From: Symbiotaphrina buchneri
Lineage: Eukaryota > Ascomycota > Symbiotaphrinales > Symbiotaphrinaceae
Direction: 5' to 3'
DNA: 64,000 nt
NCBI GenBank assembly: GCA_001599915.1
Contig: BCIG01000017.1
Location: 124,001-188,000, forward strand
Each line of letters opens with the position of its first letter. Within the stretch, counting starts at the first letter, position 1. Positions 33,214 through 64,000 of this stretch are shown piece after piece. Made by a program: the position numbers and the translations under genes. The notes beneath the pieces are model-generated. The model made no database searches and was not told the origin of the DNA. It was given only the letters and a program-made list of their open reading frames with translations.

Positions 33214-35294
33214 TCAACCGTTATACGAGAAAGGCCCTGACATAGTATTGAAGTTCTCCGGGATAAATGCGTTCGGTGAGGTGAAAGCATTGGCCAGCAG
33301 AGCATCGAACTCATTTTGCAGATTACTGTTATCAATAAGAGGAGGCAGTGGCTCTGTGATAGCCCCTATGTTGGCCGCCGAAGACATTGACTCTAGAAGG
33401 TCGAATGTGTCCCGAGAGGCAGCTTTAATTTCCTGCATCACCTGTACGGCGACTGGCCATTGCTCCTTCAGCTGGTTAAGGGCTCCAATGGAAAGCTGAA
33501 GTCGCAGTTTCAGGGCGGTTCCTTCAGAACCATCGGGGTTCAAAGAGTATGCCGCCAGATGGACGACTGCCCCTAGCGCGATGCAACAGGCGAACATTGG
33601 GGTGTGGTTGCCAAGAGGACCAGGCAGCTTTATGAGCCCACATACAGCATCGGCGGCATTGATCGCCTTGATTGTGTGCAGCTCAGAGGTACGCGCTCGG
33701 TTCAAGCTGCGAATAGAGCCAGTGCACATTGTTTCTCCATAAGCAGGGGCAAATCCAAGATTAGACCGGTTACGGTGCAGAGTCATTATGGCACTGTCGA
33801 GGCTTCGGTTAGCGTCAGGGCATCTTCGAGTCTCGGAGGCTTACCCGTTGATGAACATGTTGGCTTGGAACAGCATCTCATCTACAACACCGCGTTCGTC
33901 GACGACTTTCGTCTTTGACGGAGGCAGATGGAATGCCCAATTGGTCAGACTCGCATCACAAGCGTCGATCTGCTCAGTGGTGGGTTCGAGACTCTTGTGG
34001 CAGATGGCAATCACATCGCCCAAGATCCTTACGGAATCAATCCGGTATGCGAAGGAAGAGTACATCACCTCTTCCACCGCAAATGCACGAACGTTGAAAT
34101 CATCCAGCGTTGCTGGCGTGGGGATAGCCTGCGAGACGGTAAGCGGCTGTCAACAAACGGAAGCCCAAGGAAGACTCACAGTGTTGGCTTGATAATACTC
34201 TTCTTCACATGGTAGATCGACGTCCGCTTCCACATACTGCAGAGGCCAGGTGTCCTTCTGGCTGATACAAGCCAGAATACCCCCGACGACATATAGTTCC
34301 CACCAGGTTCTCCGCCAACTTTCCTCGAGAATAGGACTACCATCGCCATGTTGTATAGCAAACTCCCGCTTCTGCATGCCAATTTCTAGAGCCAGATTGA
34401 AGGCATTGTTTAAGACCTGCATACATCGAATCTGTTCATTCACAGCGAACGATGCGACAGCAAAGATCAAAAGAGCTTGAACCGTAAAGCCATCCTGCGA
34501 TAGCGGTTGTACGAACAAGGCATCATTAACCTCATCCAGATACTTTGATGTGTCCGCACGGGTAGAATAGATTGAGCCAACGAATTTGATGACTGCATCT
34601 AATTGCTTGCAGGGATGCTGTTGCATATGATGCCAAAGATGAGCGGCCGGCAGGACGATTGGATGGGAGCGATGGAAATGACGGTAATATAACTGATACA
34701 ATCCAGATTCGGGGAAACTGCCGGAATTGGGACTGGAGAAGGACGGCAGTGACAGGGGAGTCGGTGGTAGATTGTTGGGTTGGAAGTTCCCGTTGAAGTG
34801 GGGTTGGAAGGGAACGTTTGTGTCAACAGAGGAACTGGTGTCTTGAAAGAGTAGTTAGCAACTTCGGATCAGTGACCAGCCTAATGCAAGAGCTCACCAG
34901 ACGCATGGCGGTTGAAAGCCGGGGTGTTGAAATCGAAATCCGGAGCAGAATCCGTTATCTGCTTGCGGGCCGGGGCCTTGCCCGCCGGGGTCTGCACATC
35001 GGTCCTTCGAGGGCCCCTATAACCCCTTCTCGACTTGACATATCGACACTCAAGGTGCCCCTCGCGACATCTGCTGCACCTAGGCAGCTTGAAGTCGCAC
35101 TTCAGGTGCTTGCTGCGGCACTCCAGGCACGCCGTTCTTGGCGAGTTGGAGCTATCTGTCGGCTGCCCCATGGCCACGGTGCCATTGCTCCCGACCGGGG
35201 GGAGCCCCGGGTAATTGAAGACATAGTCCACGCCGTTGTTGTTATTGCTCGTGTAAGTAAACGGCGACCCCGAGAATTTGTCGAAGGGATCCAT
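33214..35294 (-). CDS. Zn2Cys6 binuclear cluster transcription factor
   Basis: Four exons (34898-35294, 34180-34841, 33845-34128, 33214-33793) join to 640 residues. A Zn2Cys6 domain lies at about residues 54-85: ACLECRSKHLKCD, LPRCSRCREGHLECRYV (C-x2-C-x6-C-x6-C-x2-C-x6-C), followed by the basic SRRGYRGPRR linker. The C-terminal part is the helical fungal transcription-factor region: LYQLYYRHFHRSHPIVLPAA, a W-R-R-T-W-W-E-L-Y-V motif near the middle homology region, and EEVMYSSFAYRIDSVRILGD. It should bind CGG half-sites in the nucleus; target genes cannot be told from sequence. The second acceptor was taken at TTTCAAG (after 34841), which is the only choice that keeps the frame into SGSFPESG. 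It is divergent from the small gene at 35679 across 384 bp, so the two may be co-regulated. Confidence 0.88.
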
Positions 35295-35678
35295 TTTAAT
35301 ATTGGTCGAGCGCAGCGTATCGATACGATGCTGCTCCGAGATGGAGACCGGTGTCGTCGCCTGGAGTTACAACTAGAGGCATATCCGCCGATCGGGTGGG
35401 GAAGTCGTTAGTCACCATGCCGTAAATGGCAAGGGGCAAGCATCTGGGATCCTCTGAGGTCGCCGTCCTTGAACGGCGAGCATCAGACCCCCTGATGGTG
35501 CCCGAGCGATCGTACGTTCGAAGCCCAGAAGGTCAACGTGCATCCTGTATAAATGGGAAACTTTATGAATGCCGATCCTAGCGAATAAATTCGACAGGCT
35601 GCCTTCAAGCATTGAAAAACGCTCTACAACTAATTGACTGCCCACCCGGCCGGTACCAAATCTCTCCTACATTCCGCG
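35295..35678. promoter_or_regulatory. Divergent promoter between the Zn2Cys6 gene and a small Cys/Trp protein gene
   Basis: 384 bp between start codons of opposite strands. It includes direct or inverted CGG/CCG triplets suited to Zn2Cys6 binding, but none is a convincing pair. Inferred from orientation. Confidence 0.4.
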
Positions 35679-36266: not shown

Positions 36267-37377
36267 TTAGATGGCCTCAATGATCTCGTCCTCGATGCCG
36301 ACATTGGGTTCATCCCACGCCCTGGCGTCGTTGTACTCCTCATCCGCATCCATATCATCCTCTCCAGGGTAGCCATCACCGTTGACACCGAGGATCCCGT
36401 ACTTATCATCAACCTTGTTCAGATCGGCAAGACCGTGGAGGCCAGTATGTTTCGGAATTGGAGCACCACCAGCACCAGCAAGCCCGTTGTGACTGACTGC
36501 AGAGGCCAACCCAGGAACGTGGACATAGCCACCAGCTACAGAACGAGAAACAGGCCCGCCATTGTGCCCGAGATGGACTTCCTTCTTGACCTTGACCCGT
36601 TTAGAGGGGGAATCTTCGTCAGACATGGCGGCCACGTCGTCATCACTCTCCTGGGTGACATCGTAGAAGTCTGGAAACTGCTCAGAGATTCCAAGGGACT
36701 TGAGCTCGCTCTTGTGGATACGGACAGGTTTCGTCTCTTCATCTTCCTCCTTCAGGCCTCCGGAAGATCCGAGTTCATTCTTCATGCCAGCTTTACGCTT
36801 CCTACCAGTGCTGCCACCACCGGAGGCAGTAGTACCCTCAGACTTGGCATTGGATGAAGGAGTCTTTGCGACACGGGCCTTGCGAGGAGTGCTGTTGACC
36901 TTGCCGGGGGTGTCGTTGTTGTTCGAGGAGCCAGCCTTCGAGATGGTGAAGGCAACATTGGAGCCATTAGCCTTTGCAAGTTGACGGATCCTTACAAGAC
37001 GCTCCTGAATGGCACGAGGAGTGGGCTTCTCACGGTCCCCAGCTGTAAGGCGTTAGTTGGGATGATTCACATAGCATGGTCCGGAGATAGCCAGTTCGGT
37101 TTGAAAAATGGACTATCCCAAGGGTCAGGTAAGAGAGTCTGGAGACTACTTACGCCAAACATCGGCAACCTTCTTGGCATCGACGGAAACATCATGAGTC
37201 TCCAAGATCTTCAAGAGGAGCTACTTCAAGCGTTAGCATAGGATAACGGATCGATGCAGATAAAGTTCCGAATCTGAGGCCGATGTACTAGCCTAATGGA
37301 GCTTGACTGCAAAGATGGAACGTGGAGTAGTATTCTCTTACCAGCTGATCGACATCGGGGGTCCACTTGATAGGCAT
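36267..37377 (-). CDS. SANT/Myb-like single-domain protein, cluster member A
   Basis: Three exons (37342-37377, 37154-37220, 36267-37042), 292 residues. Residues 1-60 form the helix-turn-helix: MPIKWTPDVDQL / LLLKILETHDVSVDAKKVAD / VW, then TPRAIQERLVRIRQ as the third helix. The tail is Ser/Gly/Asn-rich, with a basic patch TGRKRKAG, a KRVKVKKEV patch containing a V-K-K-E SUMO-type motif, and an acidic end (DDMDADEEYNDARAWDE). Introns fall after W+7 (phase 0) and after the conserved W/F that ends helix 2 (phase 1), the same places as in member D. It is the only minus-strand member and stands back to back with B over 1.8 kb. DNA or chromatin binding is inferred from the fold; no target is known. 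Confidence 0.8.
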
Positions 37378-39184
37378 CTTGAAGGTGCTTGTTGAACTCG
37401 AGGTAGTGCTGGTGTGTTGTAGAACTTTCTTTTGTTTGAGTGTTAGATACTTGCATTTCTTTGGGAGTTGTGTGAGGAAGGAAGTAACACTTACTTGTAC
37501 TAAAGGCAGGAAGTATGAAATACTTGTAGTTCTCGAGTGGGGCGAGCAAGGTAGGTGAGGAAGTGGAGAGTTGAGGAAGGAAGGCTGAGAGCAAGAGGAG
37601 TTGGAAGAGGTGAAGAAGGCAGAGGAGCTCGAGGAAAGTGAAAGTCCAAGTCCAAGCGTGAGAAGAGGAGTTGGGGCGAGTTCAAGTCAAGTCCAAGTGA
37701 GCAAGAGTGAATATGAAGGGTTGGGAGGCATGTGTTTGTGAAGTCGGGTCAGGATTAAGTGAAGGTCGGAGTGCAGAGCGTTAGCTGGTTGCACACACAC
37801 TATAACCTGCAATATTTGAAGAGAGCCTCAGGTACCTTCGGGTAGGTCTTGATGTGGGCGTGCAGAATGGTATGTGTTTTAGGAATTAAATGAACATTTG
37901 GAGATGTATGTTGTTGGCTACCCATGAACTTCAATCCCTTTTCTTTTTGGCACAGAAAACCACCGATTTGACCAGGCCGCTCAATGCCTCCTGCCATTGC
38001 ATTCCTCCCGGTGTCCCCGGGTACTGGGATCCACACTTCGAAGCCTCTCCGGACTACTCGCACATGTGGTGGGCGATGGCTGAACTCAATTGCCGCGCTC
38101 TCTCCCTACCTTGATCCTCCTCCCCAGGCGTCCAGACGGACCGTTTGACGCTTTTCGGAAGCTATCACCCCTGCACAGCGGGAGAGAGACTTGCTCGCTT
38201 ACTTCCCCACGTAAAAGCTTCTTCGAACGTGCTGTCCCTCCCCACCAACTGCTAACAGCGCGCTGTGTCTGGGCATGTATCTTTCTTGTACCACCAACGC
38301 TTGCACAACTGAAGCTTGTCGCTGGGCATGCCGATCTCGAGGAGTTCTGCGTCCCAGAGACTGGCGGTGACCTGTTGCCCGGCAGAATCCTACTTGTGCG
38401 CCGTAAATATCGCAGGCACATTTGGAAACTCTACGCTCTGAATGTCACGAATGAACAGCTTCACGCTTTGCCTCTCCATCTTACAAGTTCGTTGCGAGCA
38501 GGATGCAATTTCCGAAGCCTGGAATCCCATGCAAGCACACAGACGTGACATCTTTTAAGCAATGAAATTGCCTGCAGAGAAACGGCAAAATTGATACAAT
38601 TATGCTCCTCCACCCAAGTGTAATTTACCATCGCTGTAATACACATGTACGCCGCATCAACCTCATGCGGTTCATGTGTGAATGACCTCTTGGGGATAAT
38701 CAAGAGCGGAAGAGCAATTTTTGATACCTTTGGCATTTCCTCAAGATAAGAAGGTCCATTGCACTACAAGGGGTTCACTGCTAACCAAATTCACCGCACA
38801 TTCACCTTCATGATGCTCTGAAATATGCAGGAAAGAACTTGAGAAGCGGGGGCACCTTTCAGCTTCTACTGTTTGCTCAACTCACTCTCATTTATTTCTC
38901 CAGCCTGTTCGCCTTCTCTCCTTCAGACACCGCTCTCCTCTCCACTCGCTTCTGCTCTTAAGATCGAGGCTTCTTCTTCTTGCAACGCATATCTTAAGCT
39001 TAAGCTACCTTACTGTTCCAAAGCTCATCCACTTACATCGTTAACTCGACTGCCGTAAAGACGTCGGCACATACCTCCAACACTCGAGCATCGCAAGCCG
39101 CTTCGTAAGTTCACATACCAACGTGGTCCTTCCCCGACTTCCTGATAACACTGGATACGCAATAGTAGCCTCGACACAGTCATC
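37378..39184. promoter_or_regulatory. Divergent intergenic region between cluster members A and B
   Basis: 1.8 kb. Both flanks are strongly CT-rich in the sense direction of the adjacent gene (minus strand about 37440-37680; plus strand about 38870-39000), typical of fungal leaders. The middle part (about 38080-38740) has open frames on both strands that I could not connect to any product. Confidence 0.5.
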
Positions 39185-39965
39185 ATGGTCAACTGGAAAG
39201 ACCCCGAGTCTCACGCTCGCCTCCTTATGGCTATCATTTCTGCGCATGAACTCAAGGTCGACAACAAGAAAGTTGCTGCTGCATTCGGTAAGTCTTCCAT
39301 CGCAGGGATCCGCCCCAACTACCTCTATGACATGTTGCTGATTCCTCACAGGGAGTGACATTACTCCCAACGGCATCGCTAAACAGCTCCAAAAGTTGCG
39401 TGAGACTGCAAAGAGTTCAGAGGGATCACGCACACTCGCTGCTGCTAGCACGGCCTCTGCCCAACCTTCGCAGGCAAAGAAGGCCAAGACGGGAAAGTCT
39501 GGGAGTCTTAAGACAAAGGGACTGAAAAAGTCGAACACTCCTCCGGCTACTCCCGCAGCTAAGACGGACCATACCGACGACGAGTCCGGTACCGCTCATG
39601 TGAAGAATGAGATGGATGAGAGCAAGAGTTTCATCACACCGGAGTTCGAAGACGCTGAGGTCGGTGCTCTTACCACACCAGGCTCGCCGATGTACACCGA
39701 ATGGTCAGTCAAGCAGGAAATGGCCAGAGGGGCCTGCTCTCCCACCCCGATCCGTCAGACCGATTCCTTGATGACTGGCGGTGTCCAGAGACGCACCACT
39801 TCCCGCTCTGGCGTCAAGCGCTCGTACAGCGAGGCGGATAACGCTCTGGAGGAAGACTTCGGTGAAATTCTCGATCAGCTCCCGGGACCGGAGAAGTGGG
39901 AAGGCAGCGAAGAGGATATCGGGTCGGACAGTGAGTACCATGACCAAGAGGATGAGGACGAGTAG
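39185..39965 (+). CDS. SANT/Myb-like single-domain protein, cluster member B
   Basis: Two exons (39185-39287 and 39352-39965), 238 residues. The domain is MVNWKDPESHARLLMAIISA, HELKVDNKKVAAAFG, then TPNGIAKQLQKLRETAK. The single intron splits a Gly codon right after A-A-A-F (phase 1), matching members A and D. The tail is Lys/Thr/Pro-rich (SQAKKAKTGKSG, KTKGLKKSNTPPATP), then acidic at the end (SDSEYHDQEDEDE). Two SUMO-consensus tetrapeptides are present, V-K-N-E and V-K-Q-E. A basic SGVKRSYSEADNALEEDFGE block comes near the C-terminus. Likely a nuclear, DNA-associated protein; function unknown. Confidence 0.82.
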
Positions 39966-41740
39966 CCATTGTTCACGGGGCTGTGCTTACATCACTGTCT
40001 GGTAGTGCCTGACATATAGACATCTTTGTCTGCAGGACACGTGGGAGCGCCTGGGGCGAACTGTGCATGGAGCCATCTTAACTTGTACAGTGCTCCATAA
40101 CTGATACAAATCAAGACTTCTAACATGATGCTGTGCTGCAGTGACTTTGCCTGTTTATGCGTGCCGGAGGGTGCTCTCTTTTGATGCCTTTGCTTGGGAC
40201 ATATTTCATTCAGGACTCGCACCAAAGCTAGATGATGAATGCACAATGATGACGTGAGGATCTCATGCACGACCGAGCCGCTTTTTGTAGGTCCGGAATT
40301 ATAATAACCATACGGAGTAAATGGGAAGTAGTAGCGCCCGATGTCCTCGACCTCGGCCACAACCTCGATGGGTCGACCATCTTCACCGCATCCCCACCTC
40401 GTCAAACGCGCATACGAGCCGGACCCCTGCGGGTCGTGTAAAGTGCTTGCATGGCCGCGTTTCACGCTAGGGCCGCAGCTGCTGCAACCTGGGAGCCGGA
40501 TGATGCTTCCCCGGCCTGGTGCCTTGGCAGGGTGTCTTGATGCGCAGACATGTGGTACTCGTACTCCGTACCCTCGCAACTTACTGCGGGGACATTTCAC
40601 GGCAAGAAAGCATGGCGACGTGTTGCAGTTTGATGCAGTTTAATGTTGATTTCGTGCCATATTACCTGCCAGCTTCCTTTTTATCTATACATGCAAATGC
40701 CCTCTGATGGACAATAAGGAGAATATGTATTGCGGAGATTCCCACCAGCAGTCCCCTCCCTCGCCGGTCTGGAAGAAGGCCAATCGGTGCATGTTCCCCC
40801 TGCCAAGCCTGTAGGCTGTCAACCGGGATCAAGGTTCAGAGCCGGCCTTTGTAGCCCGCTCGTCCGTGCGCAAATTTGGAACATCAGCTGTTATCATCCA
40901 ATCGCCAGGGCGCGCTGCTATCGATCCAATACCGACTGCATGGTGATCATCGCACCTGAGAAGGCTTGCAGCTACCTAGCCGGGGCAACAGAGGCCCCTT
41001 GAGGGCCCCTTGTGGAGTATGACTCTGTCGGTCAAGTCGTCTTTCGGGTGTTACGAGGCCAACCGTACGATGCGGGCGGAGCGCGGTTGAAGTGACGTGA
41101 GGATGCAAGGGGCAGCTTGGATCTTAGCTACTTGCGGTAGAGGAGCAACAAGGTTGGTCGCGGAATAGGGGCTTGTCTACCATGGTTGCCTTGCGGTAGA
41201 TCTGTTAGACTTGCCATCCCAACGTGTGGACTTGTACTTGCTGGGTGACTGGTTGTGCACTCAGAAATCAGGTTTGCGTGCTTTTTGCTGTACGGCCAAG
41301 GGCCTGCGTACAGATGTGAGATGCAGGTACTTGATTGTGTGAAAAAGTGTACGAGGATGTGTGGGGAATAACACAGAGGTAATGCTGCTGCGAGATGTCG
41401 AGAGGAGATGCAATCGCATATGCTCGAGGCCACACCTCGATCTCGACTTTCTCACTACACCACCTCTCTCCTCTCCAATTCTTGGGCAACTTCGGAGACT
41501 CTGACGCATTGCTTGACGGCTTGACTTGTCTTGAATCTTCCTTCCCGAAACTCCATGAAGAGCTCTAAGCTTCACGGATAGAACAACTACGTGCTTGCCA
41601 TCCACACAGATCCTTACAACCCGCTACAACTCGCTACAACTCGCTACAACGCTCCACGGGGAGGCATACCGTCAGGGCCTTCCATCGACCAACTCCACAA
41701 CTTCATAGCCTTCTGATCTCCACCACTTAGCCTTTCCGAA
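39966..41740. other. Intergenic between cluster members B and C
   Basis: 1.77 kb with no supported gene. A 10-bp tandem repeat (CGCTACAACT, three near-perfect copies) lies at about 41622-41651 in the probable leader of member C. Confidence 0.5.
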
Positions 41741-42567
41741 ATGCCTATTAACTGGAAAGACAAGGAGACCTACCAGCGTTTGCTGGCTTCGATCATTGCT
41801 GCGCACCCCGATTTTCGCGTGAGTATTTTCCGTCTTGCATAACAGTCCTTTACCTTGCTCTCATAGTCAATATTTGTCTTCGCGGAATCGGTCTCTCTTT
41901 CATTCCAAAAGTTTATCATGGTTGCTTTTACTTGCGATTTTTTTCATTCTTTCTTTGGAAAACGACCGTTGATGGATTTTGATTGCAGCCAAATTTCAAC
42001 CTCATTGCTGCCAACTTCGGTCAAGGTGCGACTTATGATAGCATTGAGGGACGCTTCAGGGCTATTCGCCGTGATGCCGAAAAACTGAAGGCCGAGCTCG
42101 CCACGAACCCGAATCCACCTACTCCTTCTCGTGGTCGAGCCGCGTCCACTCTTTCGACCCCACGTAAGCCTCGTAACACCAAAGCTTCTGCGGCAAATAC
42201 ACCTACCAGGCAGGGTGTGCTCCACGGAAGAGTCACGAAGTCTGCCATGGAGGGCGGTAGTCCGCCTAGGGGGAAGAAGTTGGCTGGCACTATTGTCAAA
42301 GTCGAAGAGGGTCTGTGTACACCGTCTTTTTCCGTTGACAGCGGAAATGACAGCACGGGAACCAGCATTCAGGGAGAGAGCTTTGAGGCCCAGCTTGAGA
42401 TCTCCGAAGCCGTTGGTGGGGTGGATCTTGGGCCGTGGGCATCCGGTGGCTTGGATGGATGTGTTGACCATTCTGGATACGCTTATTCGGGACATATGCA
42501 CAGTCACAATGGCTACTACACTGGCCTAGATGCGGAGGATGACGAAGCTGCTTTCGATGTGCTCTAG
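41741..42567 (+). CDS. SANT/Myb-like single-domain protein, cluster member C
   Basis: Two exons (41741-41818 and 41989-42567), 218 residues. The domain is MPINWKDKETYQRLLASIIA, AHPDFRPNFNLIAANFG, then YDSIEGRFRAIRRDAEKLK. The intron is phase 0 immediately before P-N-F-N-L-I-A, the same place as in E, F, G and H, while the N-terminus is closest to A and B. The tail carries a TPSRGRA / TPRKPRNTKA basic Pro stretch, one V-K-V-E SUMO motif and a His/Gly/Tyr-rich acidic end (GYAYSGHMHSHNGYY). It is the only member with such a His/Tyr end. Function unknown; nuclear by inference. Confidence 0.8.
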
Positions 42568-43846
42568 ATCAGCTATCGTTTCTGGGGTCTCCTGGGGTTG
42601 GTTCTTCTTCTGAGGCGTTGCTTGCTTTACAAAAGCTTCTCCTATCGCTCAATCAGAGCATGTTGTTTCCAAGGTCGCAGTTCTAGGGATAGGGGGTTTC
42701 AATGAGGGTATTTGCAGTATTGCCTCTGCATGGTCCAGGAAACAGCACTGGAGCAAAAACAATGAACAAATGATCTTACCGGGGAATACAAGCACCAAAT
42801 GAGCTTTTCTTTTGAAATGGCCAGATGACATGTCGTGCAAATTTGGGGCAGTAAAAGATGAGGTTGCAGGTCCTCTGCTATTGGATTGTGCATATTAAAA
42901 CACCCTGCACTGCAGTGTGTGGAAGCCCTACCTCCAAAAACAGAGACATCACATGCAGGCACATTCACATCCAGGTCGCTATCGAATCCAGCATCAGCAC
43001 AGCAAGACGGGTTAGTACACGTTTGTCCTCGAGAACGGAACAGTAACAAAACGAAAATTACGACCGCAGCCGTCTGGCTCCCTCACTCATTCCCTCTCTC
43101 TCTCACTTGTTCTTTTCTCCATACCCTCACCATCTCTCCCACATTCTCCTTCATCCTCACTTTTCAAACAACCTTGTCTACACCTCTGCAACGCTCCTGC
43201 TTTCCCGTCTATCAGCTTCATCTTAGCTGGTAGCTCGCTTCAACAAGTAAGTCATCCTTTCTCCACACTGATCCCTCGAGGACGGATATACTGGATTTTC
43301 TTCCTTCACTCTATGGACGTCTTCTCTTCCGTCTTCTCTTTCCGTACTGCAACACCACTCAACCTTCGAACACTTACTGCTACTACCTGAATCTCTCTCC
43401 CTTACTGATATCGCTTGACTTAGCAAGTTCTTCCAGTAAGTGATCACTCCCACGGTGTCTCTGCTGTTAGTTTATTCTCCTTCCGCTCCTTGGGAGTCTT
43501 CCTCTCGCAGTGTTCCTCTCGCTACTTACGGATCACCGTCATATTATCTCACATAAGGCAACTCGCATCCTGAGAACACTGACATATTCTTGCCTTTCCG
43601 AATCCATGCTGTGCTTTTGTCGCATGACCACGGAAACCATCTGGCGAGGAGCCATTTCGCTGCTTGCTCTCACCCTCTTCATTCCTTTACCGCACTCACT
43701 GTACACTGTCACTCCTCGCCTTGAGACCAGTCTATCCGTCCTCCACATTCTCTTGCACTTTTTCTGTTACAATCATGCTGATGCACAGATGCCTCTTTAG
43801 ACATCATAACAACTAGTCCAGAAACGACAACTATCGAACTCTCAAG
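42568..43846. promoter_or_regulatory. Intergenic and CT-rich leader region upstream of cluster member D
   Basis: 1.28 kb. From about 43060 to 43780 the plus strand is very rich in CT, as in long fungal 5' leaders. Strong GTAAG-type donors at about 43247 and 43436, with a CTTGAC...TTAG acceptor near 43413-43422, suggest one or two leader introns. No coding region supported. Confidence 0.45.
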
Positions 43847-44870
43847 ATGGTCAAGGTTGTAAGTATATTAGATTCCCTTCTATTTCAATCCACTAGGTTT
43901 CCATGACCTATGAGATTTAACTTTGGCTGATATGAAGCACAAGGTTTGGGATGGTGATAATGACACGAAGGTAGACTTCGCTTTTTCCTCGGCATCTCGC
44001 GCTCGCCGGTTGCTGATCAGTCCACAGCTCGCGCTCTACTTGATGAATACCGAGGGTGTGAACTACGACCACATGCAGAAGTTCTTTCCTGGTAAGAGTA
44101 CCCCAAACTGCTTAATCATGTGTGCATTAGCTTCGCTCTTTGTCATAGCCCCAAAGTGGTAATTGGTATTGACATCTATCACAGAAGCCAATCGTTCCGC
44201 CCTCGTTAAAAAGGTGTTCGCCGTTCGTAAAGAACGTAATGCGATGTTGGAGGCGCTTGGTCTGCATGATGATGGAAACGGTGAGGAAGAAGGAGGCGCC
44301 AGTGCGAAGAAGCGCGGTAGAAAGTCCAATGCTGGAGATGGCAACAAAGCTACCCCTAAGAAGGCCAAGGCAGAAGTCGACGCTGACGGCAATTCTGTTG
44401 TCACTCCGGGCAAGAAGACTCCAAGCAAGCCGCGCGCAAAGAAAGTGGCCACTCACCCTGGAGACGCTGAAGGTAATGATGGGTCCGAAGGGGAAGCTGT
44501 CAAAGCTACTCCCAAAACCAAGAAAGCGGGGACCAAAGCTACCACTCCAGGCAATGGTGAGACCGGCTCCGATGGCGAAGTCACTAGTGCTACCCCGAAA
44601 GCCAATACCAAGAAGACCTTGACGCCGGGCAAGAGTACCGAGACTACCCCCAAGAAGCGTGCCCGTAAGCCCAAGGCGGCTGCTCTCCCTGGTAAGGAAG
44701 CATTAATGAGCATATCGACATTGGTATGAGCTAACGATGCTGTAGAAGACACCGTCGCGGTCGGCAAGTTCGAGGATTCTGATGAGGGTTCCTTCGAGGT
44801 TGACGATGCCATGCTCCAAATGGCCGCTGATAAGGCTCTCCGCGACGAGTCCGACGAGCCTACCAAGTAG
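43847..44870 (+). CDS. SANT/Myb-like protein with histone H1-like tail, cluster member D
   Basis: Five exons (43847-43858, 43938-43970, 44028-44091, 44185-44691, 44746-44870), 246 residues. The short spliced N-terminus reads MVKV / HKVWDGDNDTK / LALYLMNTEGVNYDHMQKFF, then ANRSALVKKVFAVRKER. The 57-bp second intron is a multiple of three, so reading through it also gives an open frame, but splicing restores the family pattern W-x7-L. The long tail is made of Lys/Ala/Thr/Pro/Gly units like a linker-histone tail: KKRGRKSN, TPKKAKAE, TPGKKTPSKPRAKK, TPKTKKAGTK, TPKKRARKPKAA, with T-P-x-K steps fit for CDK phosphorylation and minor-groove contacts. The last exon is acidic. Intron sites match member A. 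Confidence 0.75.
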
Positions 44871-46760
44871 GGAGTGGCTTGCAGCAACGCTCTCTTCCCG
44901 AACGTCTGCTGCTCCTTTCTTCTGCGTTCTATCTCGTTGGCATAATGTTTTCTGCTCTCCTGCGAAGGTCTGCTGTCTTGGTTCCGAAGGACAAGCAGCA
45001 AGGGTTGGAAGGTCTTTTTGCTGGCTGGAAGGTTTGGGAAGTTGGATCGTGGATTTCGTGGTAGGAGCGCAGCTTGGACGCTTTGTTTGGCACTGGTGTG
45101 ACAGGACATGGCTTTCTTCCGCTCAGTGGTATTCCTTTGAGGAAAGGTTCTTTTGTTCAGCATGAAGCCGTCTCCTTTGATGTTGACTGGCTGCATATCA
45201 GGATGAGATAGCTAATGCAGATGCACGCTTTCTCCTACTATGTATTCTGTCTATTCGTGAAATGCGGGTACTTGTGTACTGATCGTATGTCTACCTTGAA
45301 GCTACTGGAGCCGGGGAGATGCCAGCAGCTCCAAGTATGAGCACCCATCGTAGTATCTCCCTCGAGTATCGCAAGTTTGGCTTTGAAACTGACCTACGAG
45401 CCCCAGGGTAAAGCTGTTCATACATTGTAGATCTCTATGTGAGTGGCTAGTCGGATGTCTCAACTGACAGAATCAGGCCCTTGCCGGCAACAGCTTTCGG
45501 AATCGAGGCTCTTGGCGAATCGCAGCAAACAGGCAGCGATATCTTTTACCGCCAAGCTTGATCATAGATCCCTCCAGAACTAGGGTTCCACATCTTCCTT
45601 TGGTCAATATCTCAGCCTCAGCTGCCTTGAGCATCTCCTCAAACGCCCAGCTGTTATACTGTTGCTCCCCTCTTGGATTAGTGGATGAAGCGTAAGCTTG
45701 ACAGGAACCCAAGGGAGTGGGGTGAGTAGGATGATGTAAGGCGTTGAATGGAGGCGCGCACAGGAGAAAGTGCAGAGGACGGGAAATCCAATGGCCAACT
45801 CGTCCACAGCTAGGTGAATGGAGACACTTTCTCACAGAAGTAAGGATGCATTCGACCTGCTAACAGATTTCGAAACGCTCCATAGGCAGGCAGCAAGCAA
45901 GAGCAACAAAACATTCCTGGACTGCAATCACCCAACAACCAAAAATGGCTGTACCGCAGTGCTCAAGCTGGGTTGTGCCATATCGTGGATGGAATTTCAT
46001 GGAACCATGTGGTATCATCAGGTCTGGCGAAAGCGCAATACTGATCTCGTTATGAGGTTATTGATTTTGATCCTTTGTCTCAGAATATAGGGTGTGCAGC
46101 ATGCAGTGGTAGGCGTAGGAGTAGTATTCTAGGTATGAAGGTGGTTTGGTGCGACAGGTCTGCAGCTAACGCCGAACCCCTTTCGAGCCCCTTTTCAGTC
46201 GCTTCGGCATTCGCCGTCCACAGGATGGGTTGCCAATGACGCTAGCGGGTATTCACGATTTAACCATGATTGGACAATCGGACGTCCTTACAGTCCTTCC
46301 AGTCCGCCAAGCCTTTACCCAGACTGCCAGGATGGTTTGTCTTGAAAGGAGTGGCTTCATGCTGACACTGCCACTGCCACTGCATAAAGGCAATGCCTGA
46401 GCCGTGCATGAGACTGAAACCCATCGCCCTTTTATCCTGGGAGATGGCAGCTGCAAGGCTGCTGTCAGTAAACAAGGACGCGTTCCTGTTTGCTAATGCA
46501 CGATGGAGCCTGATAACATCAAAGGCTCTGAAAGCACAAAGGGAGCATATCGATTAACCACATATCGTTCAGGAGCTTCCTATATCTTTGCTCACCTCTC
46601 ACTGTTCTTAACTTCCCATCTGCTCTTCCCTCACTCCTCTTCTATCACTGTTCGGCTGCTGTTCTGTTAAACCAGTCTTGCAAGGCAAGGATTTTGATGC
46701 TTTTGCTGCACCTCTCTTCCGAAGCCTTGCCCTCTTGTGGTTGAACGAGCTCCCCTTGCA
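44871..46760. other. Intergenic between cluster members D and E
   Basis: 1.89 kb. A minus-strand open frame at 45473-45835 has fairly protein-like composition but lacks an early ATG and any recognisable domain, so it is not annotated. The last 150 bp are CT-rich, the probable leader of member E. Confidence 0.45.
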
Positions 46761-47539
46761 ATGGCTACTCTTCTCCGCAAAAAGTCCATGCCCCAGGATA
46801 TCGAGAAGTTCTTGTACACGATTCTGAAACAGCTAGATCTTCGCTGCGTAAGACTTTTGTTTATTTCTTCCAGTTTGCCACTGTCCACTGTCCACTTTCC
46901 AGTCATCTCTTTCTGATATGCTCGTCCTAACCTGGTCAGATTGATTGGAACTTGGTCGCTGATACTCTTGGTATCACCAACGGTCATGCGGCCCGTATGC
47001 GTTATAGCCGCCTCAAGGCCCAAATGGAAGGGTCCTTGCCGGCCCCTCGCCGCGGCGCTTCAAAGAGCGACGAACAACGAGGCAAGAAGACGATTTCCGC
47101 GAAGAACACCCAGGAGCACAAGCGACAGAGGAAGTCCACGGAAGAACCGACTGTCAAGGCAGAGAAACAGCCGGGAAATGTCATCAAGCAGGAAGCGATG
47201 GAAGCTGGCGCGTTTTCTTCAACGTATGAGCTACGAAGTGTCGCATTGCCGCAGGAAGCTCTTCGAAAGAGGAGGCATGACGAGGTTCAAGATGATGCCG
47301 AAGCGGATATGCCACTGGCGGCAAGGGTAAGGGTCAAGCCTGAACCTGTTGAAGAACTTACAGTGGTCACAACTCACACGCCTGTTTCTGTTGCTCCGAC
47401 CGCGCCTCCGATGACTACGGCTCCATTGTTTGCGGGCCCTCTGCATCAGGAACGATCTCACGGCTTTGCAGCTCCAGCTTTTGTAAAGGTTGAGGAGTTC
47501 GACAGCGGGGTATCGTTCATCAAGCCGGAGCCTTTCTAA
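46761..47539 (+). CDS. SANT/Myb-like single-domain protein with five SUMO-type motifs, cluster member E
   Basis: Two exons (46761-46847 and 46940-47539), 228 residues. The domain is SMPQDIEKFLYTILKQLDLR, C / IDWNLVADTLGI, then GHAARMRYSRLKAQME. The phase-0 intron falls right before I-D-W-N-L-V-A, as in F, G and H. The tail has basic patches (EHKRQRKS, LRKRRHDE) and five matches to Psi-K-x-E: VKAE, IKQE, VKPE, VKVE and IKPE. The last one sits five residues from the C-terminus (IKPEPF). Such density suggests multi-site SUMO attachment or a charge-regulated tail. Nuclear location and DNA binding are inferred. Confidence 0.83.
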
Positions 47540-48448
47540 GAGTGTTATTGAAGATTGGGAAAGCATGTACCTAGGGAGCATCCATGGTTGAAGGCAGACG
47601 CGTGTTGAGAAAGATGTCGGTAACTAGAAGCATCACATTCTAGCCACCGGAAATCTGATTGATTTGCACCTTTATTTGACCCCTGTCTCTGACTGAAAGT
47701 GTTCATGCAGTCTATTACGTGTGATAGTCAGCAAACATATGGACTACCATGGACTTCTAGATGGTGGACTCACCTGGCATACTGGAGCGACCAACTTACA
47801 GACCTCGAAATTGGGCATACACGCTCGAATGTTCTGACGGTTGGCATGCTCAAATCTTATTTGCAGTGACTGACTTGACAGAAACAGCCCGGCCAGTGGG
47901 AGCCCGCCGAGATGAAAAACGCAGGCCAACAGGGCGGATTCTAGTACAGTCTGACATCTAGCTGGTTTCGCCGAGCCCTGAAAACTTTGCTCGTTCAGGA
48001 CAAGACCGAACGGGATGCAACCTTTCCTGGCGGTCTCTTCTCCTTCCTCACTTCCTCTCACGCTTTCGTCTCTCACCACTCTCTCCATCCGTAACACACC
48101 CTCCTCCACGCACTCACCCACTCCAGAGCCCTACGCAGACATCTTCCAGGTATGATTCATCATCGCTACCCTAGATCCATTTGCATGCTCATCATTCTGA
48201 ACAGCTCTTGTGAACACCACGTTCATCCATCAGAATCCTCAACACTCACCTCAGTCCACAAGTAAGTACTATCATGCACTCACGTGACTTCACCATCATC
48301 ACATCATATAACACGACCCTGTCCACTATCTGCATATTATATAGCACTACACATGCCGTTGGGTTCATGAGAACATGCTGACTGATCATGATGTCTAAGA
48401 ATGTCTCCAAAAGTCATTCCCGAGTTCATCACTAAGGGAACCCCTACA
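47540..48448. promoter_or_regulatory. Intergenic and leader region upstream of cluster member F
   Basis: About 0.9 kb. CT-rich from about 48030 to 48250, with a candidate leader-intron donor (GTAAGT) at about 48262. No coding region supported. Confidence 0.45.
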
Positions 48449-49007
48449 ATGGCACCTATCAAGGCGAAGAAGGCCCCGAAGCCCAAGGATACCACAAATG
48501 GCGGCAACGGAAAGGATTTTTCTAGCATGACCGAGACGGATCAGAAGATCTTGCTTACGTCTATCATCTTTTCTGACGGGGTCTCCAATGTACGTGATAA
48601 GTCCGTGCAGCGCTTACTTATTCCATTACTAAAGACCTGAACAGATCGACGTCAAGAAAGTGGCCGACAGACTCGGGTATAAGAACCATGGCTCCGTAAC
48701 GAATGCCATTTCCCGTCTCAAGAAAACTTATGGAATCAACATGAACGGTACCGGTGGTGGCTCGCGTGTCTCTAAGCCGGCCGCTGGTGGTACGCCCTCG
48801 AAGGCCGCCAAGCGTAAGCTGGACAGCGAAGCGGGTAACGTCAAGGCTAAGCGCGCCAAGCCTGAGGGGCAGGATTTCCCAGAGCCTGAGGTTGAAGAAT
48901 GTATTCAGGTTGCAAAGGGCGAGGAGATTCAGTCCGAAGGCTTCCACTATTCTGCTGTTCAGTCTTTGATTGATGAAGAGGCAAACCATAAAGAGCCCGA
49001 GCAGTAG
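48449..49007 (+). CDS. SANT/Myb-like single-domain protein, cluster member F
   Basis: Two exons (48449-48589 and 48645-49007), 167 residues from the ATG in ACAATGGC. An in-frame ATG 16 codons earlier (48401) would give 183. After a Lys/Pro-rich lead (KAKKAPKPKD) the domain is MTETDQKILLTSIIFSDGVS, N / IDVKKVADRLGYKNHG, then VTNAISRLKKTYGINMNG. The phase-0 intron before I-D-V-K-K-V-A is shared with C, E, G and H, and the third helix ends in the same Y/H-G-I-N-x-N-G as member H. The tail is short, first basic (AAKRKLD, KAKRAKPEG), then acidic. Its strict Psi-K-x-E motifs are absent; A-K-P-E and A-K-G-E are near misses. Confidence 0.82.
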
Positions 49008-49937
49008 TAGCTGGAATCTCTTCTTCATTATGGCGACTACTACCCTTCTCTGTTTGGGGACCGCGGAGAGGCGTCATCAAGTCATGGGTTTTCGGAACGA
49101 TGGACCTTGAAGATGGCAAGTTCTACACAGTATGACAGCCCATATGGCTTTGTCGTTGACTCTCAATAAAGCGATTTACCGCAGATGCTTCTATCAATTC
49201 CGTGATCCTTGTAGAATCCACCACAACTGTAGAAGCACGACAGCCCTTATTATTTCTCAACGAAAGCGATTTCCTGCAAGTGCTCGTACCAACCCCCAGA
49301 TCCTTGTGAAATCCAATGATGACCGTAAAAGCATGAATCTCAAGCACAATTGAGAGCTTTCTGCATAACGGAACAGAAGTTTCCATGCTTGTATGAGCCC
49401 GATGAAGAATCCAAATGTCTCATTGCGTTCCACTCGTCATCTTCTCATACTTTCCGTCCTGTCTCGTAAAACTCCATAGTCAGCATTCTACCCGTCTCGG
49501 TCAATTGCAAAGTCTCCTCATCTCTTCCCACTCAAACTGTTCATGTTGATCCTGCTCCAAGATAGCCTGTGAGTCGGTGAATCGTGAGAGTTCGGAATCC
49601 GACGACTCAGCGGCTCAATTGGGTCTGGACCGGACCATTTTGGGCGAACCTGTCGACGGCCAGGCACCTATAAGAACCCTCTCTCCCCATCCAGAACTCG
49701 TGCACTCTTTCATACACCTCTTTCCCAGTAGAGACTCGGTCAACTTCTTTCTCTGCTCCCCAAACCTTTACCTTTGCTGTGCCAAAGCATCGCCGTTCTT
49801 AAGAACTCAGCCAAGGCTTCTTGTCCAACCTGCAAACTACTACAGAGTAAGTCCCAGCTTGCGGGTAGAGGTCGCTGTTGTAGCAGAAGACTCACACTCT
49901 CAAGCAAGTCCAAGTCTTCCAAGCACTTGCAGTCAAT
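49008..49937. promoter_or_regulatory. Intergenic and leader region upstream of cluster member G
   Basis: 0.93 kb. A candidate leader intron with donor GTAAGT at about 49847 and acceptor near 49903 lies just before the ATG of G. No other gene seen. Confidence 0.45.
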
Positions 49938-50597
49938 ATGTCCTCAACTACTGTGGTTGATCATCCTAACAAGGACCCAAAAGCTGTCGGTAACAAGGAC
50001 ACTGCTGCCAGCGACGAGATCACGCTTACTCCATCTGAAATGAAGCTGGTCTTGATCTGCATGAAGCATGCCGTCACGGATGGTATGACTGTAAGTAATC
50101 TCCATCCAGCTCTGATCTTTCTGCCCCTTGTTCCGAGTCCCCGAGGCATGCTTGGAGCTTATGGGCATCTGACACATATCCCAGATCAACTTCGTCAAGG
50201 TGGCCGCAGAATACGGGTATAAAGACGACAAGCTTGCCCGCCAGAAGTGGGGTTATGCTCGCAATAAGTTGCCGAAGATCAAGGTCACCGGCACGCCTGC
50301 TGCCAGGGCCAACAAGAAGAACGATTCTGACGCTACGCCCCCGAAGACTCGCGCCAGGAAGTCGAAGACTGGAGCTGGCGTCGAAAAGACCCCGACCAAG
50401 CGCGGTGCTAAGAAAGCGACCAAGTCTGAGGAGAAGGTCTCGGATACCGACCTCGAGGCCGAGTCTCACGATGATGAAGAGGTTGGCAATGTAAGTCATA
50501 TCACCATCTTGAGGCCAACTGTGTCTGGTTGGACGCCTGTTAACTCTGTGACCAGATGATGGACACTAAAGTTGAGGGCGAGGACGACTTTGCCTAA
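49938..50597 (+). CDS. SANT/Myb-like single-domain protein, cluster member G
   Basis: Three exons (49938-50090, 50185-50490, 50556-50597), 166 residues. After a polar 25-residue lead, the domain is LTPSEMKLVLICMKHAVTDG, MT / INFVKVAAEYGYKDDK, then ARQKWGYARNKLPK. The first intron is phase 0 before I-N-F-V-K-V-A as in its neighbours; a second intron sits in the tail. The tail is Lys/Ala/Thr-rich (PKTRARKSKTG, TPTKRGAKKATKS) followed by an acidic stretch ending TKVEGEDDFA. Both small size and tail layout resemble a half-length version of D. The last exon codes only 13 residues and was placed by a clean GTAAGT donor and ACCAG acceptor. Confidence 0.8.
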
Positions 50598-51320
50598 ACC
50601 TGCGGTTATGGGTGGAGTTTCCTTCTTGCTGTCTTTCTCTACAATGTCCTGAAGCACGGTTCGGACCTCTGGTCAGGAAAACGGTTCTCAAGGTCGAAGG
50701 CACCCAGCTCTGTTACGCTTTTGTGTGCATCTCGTTTTGCGTTCTTTTTGCGTTTGGTCCCTTGGAAGTAAAACGCTACTTTGGTCGTGAAGAGGTTGCT
50801 GAATACCAAATACGCCGGCCAAACGGCCTAGGCTTCTCATATCTGAAGTGATCTGATCTTGTATTGCACTGCTCGTAAGCCCGAACTGACTGTAACAAAC
50901 GTCAATCCGCCCAAGGCCGTGGTTCGCTCTCCCACCTACAGTGACTGCTCCTCTCCTGCCGGAAGCCGCACTTGGATCTCCTCTACGCATAACACTTCTT
51001 TGACGCATCAACCCTGTGCATTCGCCTTCCCTTAGGCCATGTACCTTTCAGACGGAACCACAGCCGACGGGAATCGTCCTTCATAAGTTTGACAGTCCTC
51101 CCAGCGACAACACTCCCACAGTCTGTCTTTCCTTTACCTCTGGACACTCTTCTCTTAGAGCCTGTACCTCATCTGTCCTGCACTTCTAGGACTTCAGACT
51201 TCACCGGCCAGCATCCTCGTCCGTCCGTCCAGGCCTAGCATCACCAGAGCTTCTGGACATCAGCAGCTACCATCAACAGGTACTATCAGCAAGTCACTCT
51301 CAGTTCATCTTGCAGTCAAC
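50598..51320. promoter_or_regulatory. Intergenic and CT-rich leader region upstream of cluster member H
   Basis: About 0.72 kb, CT-rich from about 50940 to 51310. No coding region supported. Confidence 0.45.
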
Positions 51321-52224
51321 ATGTCTCGGGCCAGCAACGAGGACCAGTTCAAATTCCTCATCAGTTGTATTCGACACAGCACCAGTGGAAAGGTAAGACG
51401 TCATTGCAGATCGAGACTCGAATAGAGAATAATATAAGCACAGGTCGACTTCACTGAAGTAGCCAAAGAATGCGGTGTCGTCAGCAGAGGCGCAGCGTAA
51501 GTCCAGCCTCCTATGCTATAGAACACAAACCACAAGTGAACGGAGCTGACATGAGGACTCCAGTGCAAAGCGTTATGAGCGCATGATGAAAGCTCATGGC
51601 ATCAACACCAATGGCCAGCCTACCACCCGTGCTCCTGCGTCTCGTGCTGCGACCAGTTCGAAGAACGTCAAGGATGAAGAACCGGTCACTCCGACGCCAA
51701 AGAAGCGCAAGTTTGAGGCGGTAGAGAGTCCCGGCAGTAACAGAAGTCTGAACTGGAATGCGGTCAACAACAGCGTCACTTCCAGCCCGACAGGGACTGA
51801 ATTCCGCACGGCTGGACACAACAAACATGTCAAACAAGAGCCCGCTCCTGCCTACAACACCCCTTCGGTCAAACCCGAAGAGATGATCAACACCAGTCCC
51901 TTGCAGTCCTATGCGTCGTCTGCATCCGGTATGTATCCTTCGTCGTCTGCCATGAGCACTCTGAATGGTCACGGAGATGGCGGCGAAGCGGGCCGTATGA
52001 TGGATCTCTTGGCTGAGAGCCGGGCTTCGGATAGGCTCGCCGGGGCTGCATTCGAGGGCCACCAGCAGCAGAATAATGCAAGCCATACAAGCCATACGAG
52101 CCAGGGAGCCGCCCTAATGCACCACGCCAATAGTGCGATCACGCCACCATCGCTGGTCGACTCACCATCTTCGGCTCAGCGCGTTGCTGGAGCCAGTCCC
52201 AACGATAGCATCGTGCTGGACTAG
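51321..52224 (+). CDS. SANT/Myb-like single-domain protein, cluster member H
   Basis: Three exons (51321-51392, 51444-51496, 51564-52224), 261 residues. The domain is the clearest of the set: SNEDQFKFLISCIRHSTSGK / VDFTEVAKECGVVSRGAA / AKRYERMMKAHGI. I recall this exact type (a Q-F-x-F-L-x-x-C-I start and a K-G-A-A-x-K-R-Y third helix) from fungal proteins assigned to a Myb-like DNA-binding family. Introns are phase 0 before V-D-F-T-E-V-A and phase 2 within the third helix. The tail has a TPKKRKFEA nuclear signal, three Psi-K-x-E motifs (VKDE, VKQE, VKPE), then Ser/Gln/His-rich sequence. It is the last plus-strand member of the contiguous block. Confidence 0.85.
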
Positions 52225-54062
52225 AACCGGAGTCTCGCAGGCCCCATGGCCTACCCTGGTAGCTGCTTTGACCATTCGCTACAGCTGACCTCGGAGGCAA
52301 CATAGAGGTTGACGCCATCTCGTACAGGGCATCGGAAACCCCTGGCAGAGCAGCAAATGGAGCAAGGATGGGGGCATTGTCTTTTCATATGGCGCAAGAG
52401 CAAAGCAATAATCGTCCTGTTGCTCAACCTCTGCGGAGTCTTCACATTGTGTTTTTTGTTTTTCGTCCTCGGATCTCCAAGCACGTAGACAGATTTGGCA
52501 TGGTTCAAACAGCCAATGGTCGTTCTCCACTATGCAACATAGGAATGGTCACGGGAAATTTTCCATCATCGGAATGCAGTGTTCGTGAGACATGTGACTA
52601 GAGATGCAAACTGCTGGAGGCCTTATGCGAGCAGAGATACGGCTACCGTAGGGGAAGCGGCCTATCATCTAGGCTTGAGACGGTGGTAATGAAGTAACAT
52701 AGTAGTGCGAGCTTGTAGCTCCTAGAATGCCAACTTCGATATGCAAATGATGCATTTTACAACCTCCGATAGGCAGAAGCGTCTCGTCCAGGCGGACCAT
52801 TCATAATTGTGAAGTCACCGACCAGCACGGCAGATCGTGGCTCATGTAGCTCGTTCTCTGATAAGTTCTTGCCGTTGTACCAGTGTTCGTATCCCATCCC
52901 CTGTCCGCAAAAGAGGCGGTCGGTTCGGGCATTGGACGGGGTTAATCAATTACCGCCGATAGATATCCAAAGCCAATTCTTCGGGAATTGATGACTACCA
53001 GTCATTGTTGCACCGGGGCCAGCACACCGCAGGGGATGGAGACGCTGGACTCGTGGCTTGCAACCTGAAGGAAGATGGTCCTGGTACAGGAAGTACCTGA
53101 GAACTCAGTTCACTAATAATAAGAAGTACCGGTACAATGCGATTTGCTCGCCATGAGGAAAATGAGATGCGGATAGGACCACGGGAAAGAAACAAAAGAG
53201 ACAGATTGACTGCCGGAAAGGAGACCAGAACGGCGATAGTAGTAACTAGTAGTGTAGCGCGGGACGGGAAGTAGGTACCGTAAGGTCCGGTACCTTGACG
53301 ACCTTACTCCCAGACACGCAGATAAGAAGATCAGGAAGACATGTACCCAATGCACCAAGACTTCAGCTTTTGTTGTTATCGAGTACATACATTGGAAGTT
53401 AAGGCGGGTGGCTTAGAAAAGGATGTTTTGGTGCTCGAACAACGTAGAAGTAAAGCATGATGATTGGAGGAGCCGGAGATGTTGGGTGTAGATCCGAGTC
53501 CCCGACCGCAGCGGTCAAAGCTCAATGCTGTCCATCATCCAACGACAAATCCAGATAGTGGCAGGTAGAAAAGTATGACCACTTCACCGCTGATCTCTCT
53601 GACCGCTCTACAGAGACCTTGTCAACAACATATTCGAAAGTACAGTCTACAGCGGAATATGTACGCTCCGAGCACCCTTATTTTCGGAGGGTTGTCAAGC
53701 CACTGCCTGATACGCTCGACATCCAGGTCTTGGTTGGACCCCAGGCTGTTTGGGACGTCATATTTAAGACCACCAAATGCGCTTGATAGGGTTCGAAAGA
53801 CATTCGTATTCGCATTGATGCTATGGAACCCATCTTGCCCAAGCAGTAGCCTTCAGTGTCTCGACGCCGTCCCATTGCCGAACGCCACTCCCCCAGATGA
53901 CCATGCCCCTTTTGCCCGAATCCCACCTTGCCCAATTGTACCACATGCACGAGGACGCCTCGTCAGCTGTAGCCCAGCCTATCCAGCGCCAAAACCTCGC
54001 GCCTGTAACGACAGAAATTCCGTCAACACCGCCAGCCAAAGAAGGACCAAGAGCTAAGGTCG
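52225..54062. other. Intergenic, no gene seen
   Basis: 1.84 kb between cluster member H and the 3' end of the minus-strand regulator. It contains a small GGTACC-rich patch near 53270-53295. Short frames only. Confidence 0.45.
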
Positions 54063-59967: not shown

Positions 59968-60478
59968 ATGAGGTGGGATGGTAAGTTGCACCATCTACCT
60001 TCGGGAGATATTCATTCGAGCGTCCATTGTGACTAACGCGAGTGCTGCAGCTGGGGCCGAAAGGCTCATTCTCGGAATGCTCCTATCCCAGAACCCGGAG
60101 ATGGCGATTGATTACGAACTCATCGCATCTCGCATCGGCAATGGTGTCACGGCGTCTGAGATTGAAGACCGACTTAAGTACATCAAGGAGAAGGTCGAAG
60201 ATACCGAAGCCGGCCCTGATCTCGAGTCAGCAGAGTCCATAGGTGCAACGACGGGAAATGGTAAAGACCACGAGCAGAAGAAGAAGAGAGTGGTTGCGCC
60301 CTGTACTTTCAAGAAACGGACCTATAAAAAGAGCCACCAGCCTCTGGGCCACCCACATGTGGATTCAAACTTGGAGGGTGCCGCTCATAGCATAATATTT
60401 CCTCCCGCTGTGGTTTCCGGCGCTGAACAAGAACAAGACTCCGATCATGGTCTTTCCGAGAACAACAGGGATGCATGA
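59968..60478 (+). CDS. SANT/Myb-like single-domain protein, outlying cluster member I
   Basis: Two exons (59968-59980 and 60051-60478), 146 residues. Exon 1 is only 13 nt (M-R-W-D plus one base) and the splice gives MRWDAGAERLILGMLLSQNP, EMAIDYELIASRIG, then TASEIEDRLKYIKEKVED. The fold and the I-D-Y-x-L-I-A core match members C and E. The intron site (phase 1 after R-W-D) is different from them but identical to the donor of member J at the right edge. The tail is short: EQKKKRVVAPCTFKKRTYKK, then acidic. It lies about 7.7 kb from H. Because exon 1 is so short, the start is less certain than for the others. Confidence 0.7.
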
Positions 60479-63784: not shown

Positions 63785-64000
63785 ATGGCCCCCAAGCGGC
63801 CCCAACAGCCCGCCAAGGCGAACACGAGTCCAAGGACGCCGAAGACTCCTGCAGCTTTAAGGAAGCACACCAATAAACAAAGTCCAAACAAGGTCCAAAA
63901 AGTGAAGCAGCCTCGGCGTAGCACAGGCAAGCGATTCCTTGTGCGATGGGACGGTAAGTGCATGCGTCTGACGAACTTTCATTTCACTTCTGCTTGTTCC
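63785..64000 (+). CDS. Probable cluster member J, first exon (gene runs off the right edge)
   Basis: Exon 1 (63785-63953) codes 56 residues plus one base, starting MAPKRPQQPAKANTSPRTPK and ending STGKRFLVRWD, then a GTAAGT donor. The N-terminus is Lys/Pro/Thr-rich with T-P-K and S-P-N-K steps, like the tails of members D and G. The exon stops phase 1 directly after R-W-D, exactly as in member I, where the next exon begins the SANT-like helix. I therefore infer that the domain follows outside the window; this cannot be seen here. Confidence 0.5.
   Translation, partial: MAPKRPQQPAKANTSPRTPKTPAALRKHTNKQSPNKVQKVKQPRRSTGKRFLVRWDGKCMRLTNFHFTSACS

What the first reader, a model, noticed from the sequence alone, without database searches (positions are those of the whole stretch)
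36267..52224. Tandem array of eight small SANT/Myb-like genes
Eight adjacent genes (A minus; B to H plus) encode one N-terminal helix-turn-helix of about 50 residues with the shared core [hydrophobic]-L-x-x-[IC]-(x10-14)-[VI]-[DN]-x-x-x-[VI]-A and an arginine/lysine-rich third helix, followed by tails of differing sequence. No other gene interrupts the seven-gene plus-strand run. Tandem duplication of single-SANT proteins on this scale in a mould is not something I know to be described. They may be chromatin architectural proteins, silencing factors, or DNA-binding repressors under diversifying selection. I recall a Pfam Myb-like family that fits at least members E to H; membership of A, B and D is my inference from alignment by eye.
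Basis: partly seen in the sequence, partly recalled or inferred. Interest (0 to 1): 0.85.

Follow-up and report, generated by a model that had tools for sequence, protein, structure and literature searches.

The report
Array of old fungal Myb-like paralogues
A stretch of mould DNA carries a row of small, distantly related genes, each with one Myb-like DNA-binding-type domain and a loose tail; several tails are rich in SUMO-attachment-type motifs, which suggests a local set of SUMO-controlled gene regulators.

Summary
Eight genes are present, seven in a plus-strand run with no other gene detected between them. The array is larger than reported: a ninth gene (I, 59968-60478) follows, and a putative tenth (J) is cut by the window edge. 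The motif spacing given (x10-14) fits none of nine models; the real gap is 5-9.

E and H pass Pfam's cut-off for PF22980 Myb_DNA-bind_8; F and G hit it weakly; A-D and I do not hit it. Eight of nine domains (not D) are recovered by a profile of the others, 0 of 500 shuffles as high. Introns agree: C, E, F, G and H share one position exactly, A and B another, D within a codon. D rests on introns only.

The copies are old or fast-diverging: no nucleotide similarity, domain identity at most about 38% over 35 or more positions.

New: the unalignable tails hold 13 [VIL]KxE (SUMO-acceptor consensus) motifs against 1.2 expected; control motifs occur 0-2 times. D, F, G and I have none.

Best reading: divergent nuclear Myb-like regulators, several probably SUMO-dependent repressors. 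DNA binding, SUMOylation and repression are inferred. Conservation in other fungi could not be tested.

The parts
36267..37377 (-). gene A, 292 aa; exons 37377-37342, 37220-37154, 37042-36267
   Evidence: models; leave-one-out profile 20.0 bits, 0/500 shuffles; no Pfam hit
39185..39965 (+). gene B, 238 aa; exons 39185-39287, 39352-39965
   Evidence: 31.6 bits, 0/500; no Pfam hit
41741..42567 (+). gene C, 218 aa; exons 41741-41818, 41989-42567
   Evidence: 27.9 bits, 0/500; intron shared exactly with E-H
43847..44870 (+). gene D, 246 aa; exons 43847-43858, 43938-43970, 44028-44091, 44185-44691, 44746-44870; doubtful member
   Evidence: fails sequence test (361/500 shuffles as high); introns near those of A
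46761..47539 (+). gene E, 228 aa; exons 46761-46847, 46940-47539; five [VIL]KxE motifs
   Evidence: PF22980 64.5 bits; motifs
48401..49007 (+). gene F, 183 aa; exons 48401-48589, 48645-49007
   Evidence: PF22980 17.6 bits, below cut-off; 25.0 bits, 0/500
49938..50597 (+). gene G, 166 aa; exons 49938-50090, 50185-50490, 50556-50597
   Evidence: PF22980 19.8 bits, below cut-off; 12.2 bits, 0/500
51321..52224 (+). gene H, 261 aa; exons 51321-51392, 51444-51496, 51564-52224; three [VIL]KxE motifs, PKKRK-type NLS
   Evidence: PF22980 85.9 bits; motifs
   Evidence: 24.4 bits, 0/500; no Pfam hit
63785..63953 (+). putative first exon of a tenth gene J, cut by the window edge
   Evidence: ends in RWD with a phase-1 donor as in I; codon test ambiguous (0.14 against 0.12 in another frame); no Pfam hit

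Best explanation
A local array of at least eight, probably nine or ten, old paralogues in a filamentous ascomycete. Each encodes a protein with one N-terminal Myb-like three-helix domain related to PF22980 and a long low-complexity tail. Shown here: gene models, domain similarity for eight of nine, shared intron positions, and an excess of SUMO-acceptor-type motifs in the tails of A, B, C, E and H. Inferred: the proteins are nuclear, the basic domains bind DNA (one domain per chain, so weakly, or as oligomers or with partners), and SUMO on the tails recruits corepressor or chromatin partners, so the group works as a set of divergent repressors or chromatin regulators. D and G, with Lys/Pro-rich tails and no such motif, may act more like linker-histone-like architectural proteins. 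I, with an acidic domain, probably does not bind DNA itself.
For: PF22980: E and H above the cut-off, F and G below it. Leave-one-out profiles recover 8 of 9 domains, 0 of 500 shuffles each. Across groups: EFGH profile sees A and B (0/500), C (1/500), I (2/500); ABCDI profile sees E, F, G, H (0/500 each). hhalign of ABCD with EFGH: probability 59%, E 9.1e-5 for one comparison, 30 columns. Identical phase-0 intron at the start of helix 2 in C, E, F, G, H; A and B identical at another position. Domain pI 9.1-9.9 in 8 of 9; NLS-like basic runs in 7 of 9. Tail [VIL]KxE: 13 against mean 1.23, 0/5000 shuffles; 8 against 1.01 without E; 5 against 0.96 without E and H (5/5000); seven control motifs 0-2 each; 15 long flanking ORFs, 6407 aa: 3 against 2.89 expected.
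Against: D fails the sequence tests (361/500 and 80/500 shuffles as high). D, F, G and I have no [VIL]KxE, so SUMO cannot explain the whole array; the motif test was made after the motif had been noticed by eye. I is acidic (pI 4.5). No Pfam hit for A, B, I and only sub-threshold unrelated hits for C, D. Splice sites were chosen by eye with the domain in mind. No relative found in the collections searched, which hold no fungi. No data on expression, location, DNA binding or SUMO.
Confidence: 0.55

Rival explanations
1. SANT-like use of the fold: the domains bind proteins (histone tails or corepressor partners), not DNA, and the array encodes chromatin adaptors.
For: I's domain is acidic and C's third helix nearly neutral; PDB lists mix Myb, homeodomain and SANT chains.
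Against: 8 of 9 domains have pI 9.1-9.9. The only family above cut-off is a Myb-like one named DNA-binding; the name is not a test of function.
Confidence: 0.2
2. Linker-histone-like architectural proteins: the domain gives weak DNA contact and the Lys/Pro/Ala-rich tails coat DNA without sequence specificity.
For: Repeated TPKK-like basic runs in the tails of D and G (sequences; basic runs of D).
Against: Tails of most members are net acidic or near neutral (charges -14 to +2) and all nine C-termini are acidic.
Confidence: 0.15
3. Not one family: the PF22980 group (E-H) is real, and A-D and I are other helix-turn-helix proteins that happen to lie beside it.
For: A-D and I have no PF22980 hit; hhalign probability only 59%; D fails all profile tests.
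Against: Cross-group profiles beat shuffles for A, B, C, I and E-H; C shares the E-H intron exactly; neighbouring position.
Confidence: 0.1

Closest known systems
Pfam PF22980 Myb_DNA-bind_8
   Same: E and H score 64.5 and 85.9 bits against a cut-off of 27; F and G match it weakly.
   Different: A-D and I do not hit it; the array joins two subfamilies side by side.
Canonical Myb/SANT repeats (PF00249), for example fungal MYT3
   Same: Predicted three-helix order in one domain. MYT3 passages (PMC3983115): nuclear, conserved in Pezizomycotina.
   Different: One domain per protein; no PF00249 hit at E 1 for A-I; at most two tryptophans in the first 110 residues, while the classic repeat has three spaced ones (recalled). 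MYT3 has two Myb domains.
SUMO-regulated transcription factors (recalled class)
   Same: Several psi-K-x-E sites in long tails, up to five in E.
   Different: SUMOylation untested; four of nine members lack the motif.

Membership tests
PF22980 Myb_DNA-bind_8, genes E and H | score above Pfam's gathering cut-off of 27 bits | tested here: met
   E 64.5, H 85.9
PF22980 Myb_DNA-bind_8, genes A-D, F, G, I | score above Pfam's gathering cut-off of 27 bits | tested here: not met
   F 17.6, G 19.8; A-D no PF22980 hit at E 1; I no hit. Not filed as members.
Wider superfamily joining A-C and I with E-H | profile of one group recognises the other above shuffles | tested here: met
   A, B 0/500; C 1/500; I 2/500; E-H 0/500 each
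Wider superfamily, gene D | profile recognition above shuffles | tested here: not met
   361/500 with the other eight, 80/500 with EFGH
Wider superfamily | shared intron positions | tested here: met
   C, E, F, G, H offset 0 phase 0; A, B +31 phase 1; D +34 phase 1. A and D also -36 and -30 phase 0, both seven residues after the first W. I shares none.
Canonical Myb/SANT (PF00249) | PF00249 hit | tested here: not met
   no hit at E 1 for A-H or I
Myb/SANT-type fold | three-helix fold matching solved Myb/SANT structures | tested here: inconclusive
   three helices in I, mean pLDDT 66 and 68; no PDB match below E 2.5
Sequence-specific DNA-binding protein | binds DNA | not testable with these tools
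   only basic charge in 8 of 9 domains
SUMO substrate | psi-K-x-E sites in excess of chance | tested here: met
   13 against 1.23 over nine tails, 0/5000; none in D, F, G, I
SUMO substrate | SUMO attached in cells | not testable with these tools
   needs an experiment

The most novel reading that the evidence does not exclude
A fungal locus that has long kept a row of highly diverged single-domain Myb-like proteins whose main shared tail feature is a set of SUMO-acceptor motifs: a locally encoded, SUMO-scaffolded repressor or nuclear-body system in which each paralogue supplies a different DNA specificity, with the acidic-domain member I as a non-DNA-binding partner.
Probability: 0.2. Interest if true: 0.65.

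Novelty: new variant of a known kind. Interest (0 to 1): 0.45.

Why it matters
The Pfam family of E and H is named in no paper of the open library searched, so nothing on its function was found there. A place with at least eight old paralogues, five of them with an excess of SUMO-type motifs, gives a concrete and testable hypothesis for what such proteins do. If the array proves conserved, it would be a case of long-lived clustering of regulators in a fungus.

Tried and rejected
Recent tandem duplication: rejected; no self-match at E 1e-3 in 36-64 kb, only short chance matches between coding sequences.

Solved-structure sequence hits to TAL effectors (3ugm, 4oto, 4osk, 4hpz) and to the designed dTor repeat protein (4yxx): rejected as artefacts, since no single stretch passes on its own and the scores add up over repeats. 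The remaining hits are weak (5eyb Reb1 E 0.69; 9t0z E 0.065; 4ern E 0.7).

Relatives in public collections: none found. Viral contigs with A3, A and E, genome contigs with H and A, plasmids with H. These hold viruses, plasmids, bacteria and archaea, so absence says nothing about fungi. Family size in the genome is unknown.

AT-hooks: only RGRK in D and RGRA in C, no GRP core. Tail homology: no pair below E 0.13. Domain tree: too short to trust. Alignment of exon pieces A4 was misaligned and not used.

Papers: ten searches. I saw listings and starts of abstracts, and passages of three papers: PMC12295173, PMC3998117, PMC3983115. No listing described such an array; subscription papers and preprints are not in that library, and the listings were capped (8,028 and 1,642 papers held enough terms; 20 and 15 were listed).

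Full report
What the window is. Filamentous ascomycete DNA, judged from short GT-AG introns and fungal Zn(2)-Cys(6) domains; the taxon was not identified. No whole genome is held and the collections on hand are viral, plasmid, phage, bacterial and archaeal, so what follows rests on the window itself.

Gene models. Splice-site reading by eye gave nine complete models: A on the minus strand, B to I on the plus strand. Codon log-odds, trained on seven flanking ORFs, are best in the annotated frame of all nine (0.12 to 0.27), with the other five frames at or below 0.00. A six-frame scan without the models gives nine segments of 14 bits or more beyond 35 kb, one per gene; it misses three Pfam-supported ORFs there, so it is not complete. 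Of 18 gap ORFs picked between A and H, 0 reach a Pfam cut-off. Gaps between neighbours from A to H are 723 to 1890 bases; I lies 7743 bases after H, beyond a minus-strand Zn2Cys6 gene. Near the window's end a possible first exon ends RFLVRWD with a phase-1 donor, as I's first exon MRWD does. Its codon score does not separate it from another frame (0.14 against 0.12), so J is only putative.

Domain evidence. Pfam: E and H are PF22980 members, F and G fall below the cut-off, A-D have no PF22980 hit and I has no hit. With profiles of the other eight domains, A, B, C, E, F, G, H and I score 12.2 to 31.6 bits, 0 of 500 shuffles as high; D scores -1.6, with 361 of 500 as high. Across groups, the EFGH profile sees A and B (0 of 500), C (1 of 500) and I (2 of 500), not D (80 of 500); the ABCDI profile sees E, F, G and H (0 of 500 each). 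hhalign of ABCD against EFGH gives probability 59% over 30 columns: weak, but in agreement.

Introns. Counted from the first base of the [VIP][DN] pair that opens helix 2, the intron of C, E, F, G and H lies at offset 0, phase 0, in all five. A and B have one at +31, phase 1; D has one at +34, phase 1. A and D also have a phase-0 intron at -36 and -30, in both seven residues after the first tryptophan. I has its own at -56. C goes with B and I by sequence and with E-H by intron, which ties the two groups together. Sites were chosen with the domain in mind, so these coincidences are not blind; all donors begin GT and all acceptors end AG.

Age. There is no nucleotide similarity between copies. 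The best domain pairs over 35 or more positions are E-F 37.5%, E-I 37.1% and B-C 36.4%. The copies are old or diverge fast; without orthologues these cannot be told apart.

Fold. I's domain, nearly all in one exon, was modelled alone and with exon pieces of four others: three helices at mean pLDDT 66 and 68. Foldseek gave nothing significant. This fits a Myb-like helix-turn-helix but does not prove it. The other eight domains were not modelled.

Tails. All nine C-termini are acidic (last 30 residues -2 to -13). No pair of tails aligns below E 0.13. They hold 13 [VIL]KxE motifs: E five, H three, A two, B two, C one; D, F, G and I none. Shuffled tails give 1.23 on average, 0 of 5000 reaching 13; without E 8 against 1.01; without E and H 5 against 0.96 (5 of 5000). 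Seven rearranged or substituted motifs occur 0 to 2 times. In 15 long flanking ORFs, 6407 aa, 3 occur against 2.89 expected. That this is the SUMO acceptor consensus is recalled knowledge; that the sites are used is inference. The motif was noticed by eye before it was tested.

Mechanism. Most likely the proteins are nuclear, the basic single domains touch DNA, and SUMO on the tails of A, B, C, E and H recruits silencing partners. Shown: domain similarity, charge, motif excess. Inferred: location, DNA binding, SUMOylation, repression. I is predicted not to bind DNA.

Novelty. The family of E and H is known to Pfam. No paper in the library names it, and no listing of the ten searches described such an array. 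The array, a second subfamily that Pfam misses and the motif excess make it a new variant of a known kind. Interest is moderate because function and conservation are untested.

Noticed in passing
window 24292-28146 (-): ORF with two PF00249 Myb stretches (E 1.3e-15), perhaps a Snt1/NCoR-type SANT corepressor (name recalled), about 8 kb from gene A.
   Followed up: partly
window 53800-57150 (-): Zn2Cys6 regulator between H and I (Pfam on a hand-joined piece); no codon-bias segment of 14 bits there, so it may be little expressed or decaying.
   Followed up: partly
window 61650-62357 (+): Tandem CCCH zinc-finger ORF (PF25543, E 3.8e-9) between I and putative J.
   Followed up: no
window 4923-5903 (-), 6342-8057 (+), 10848-12752 (+), 17931-20255 (-), 30148-31191 (+), 34881-35366 (-): Flanking ORFs: UFD1, GYF domain, HSF-type factor, MATH/UCH ubiquitin hydrolase, deoxyhypusine synthase, Zn2Cys6.
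   Followed up: no
window 41741-42567 (+): Gene C goes with B and I by sequence but with E-H by intron position.
   Followed up: partly
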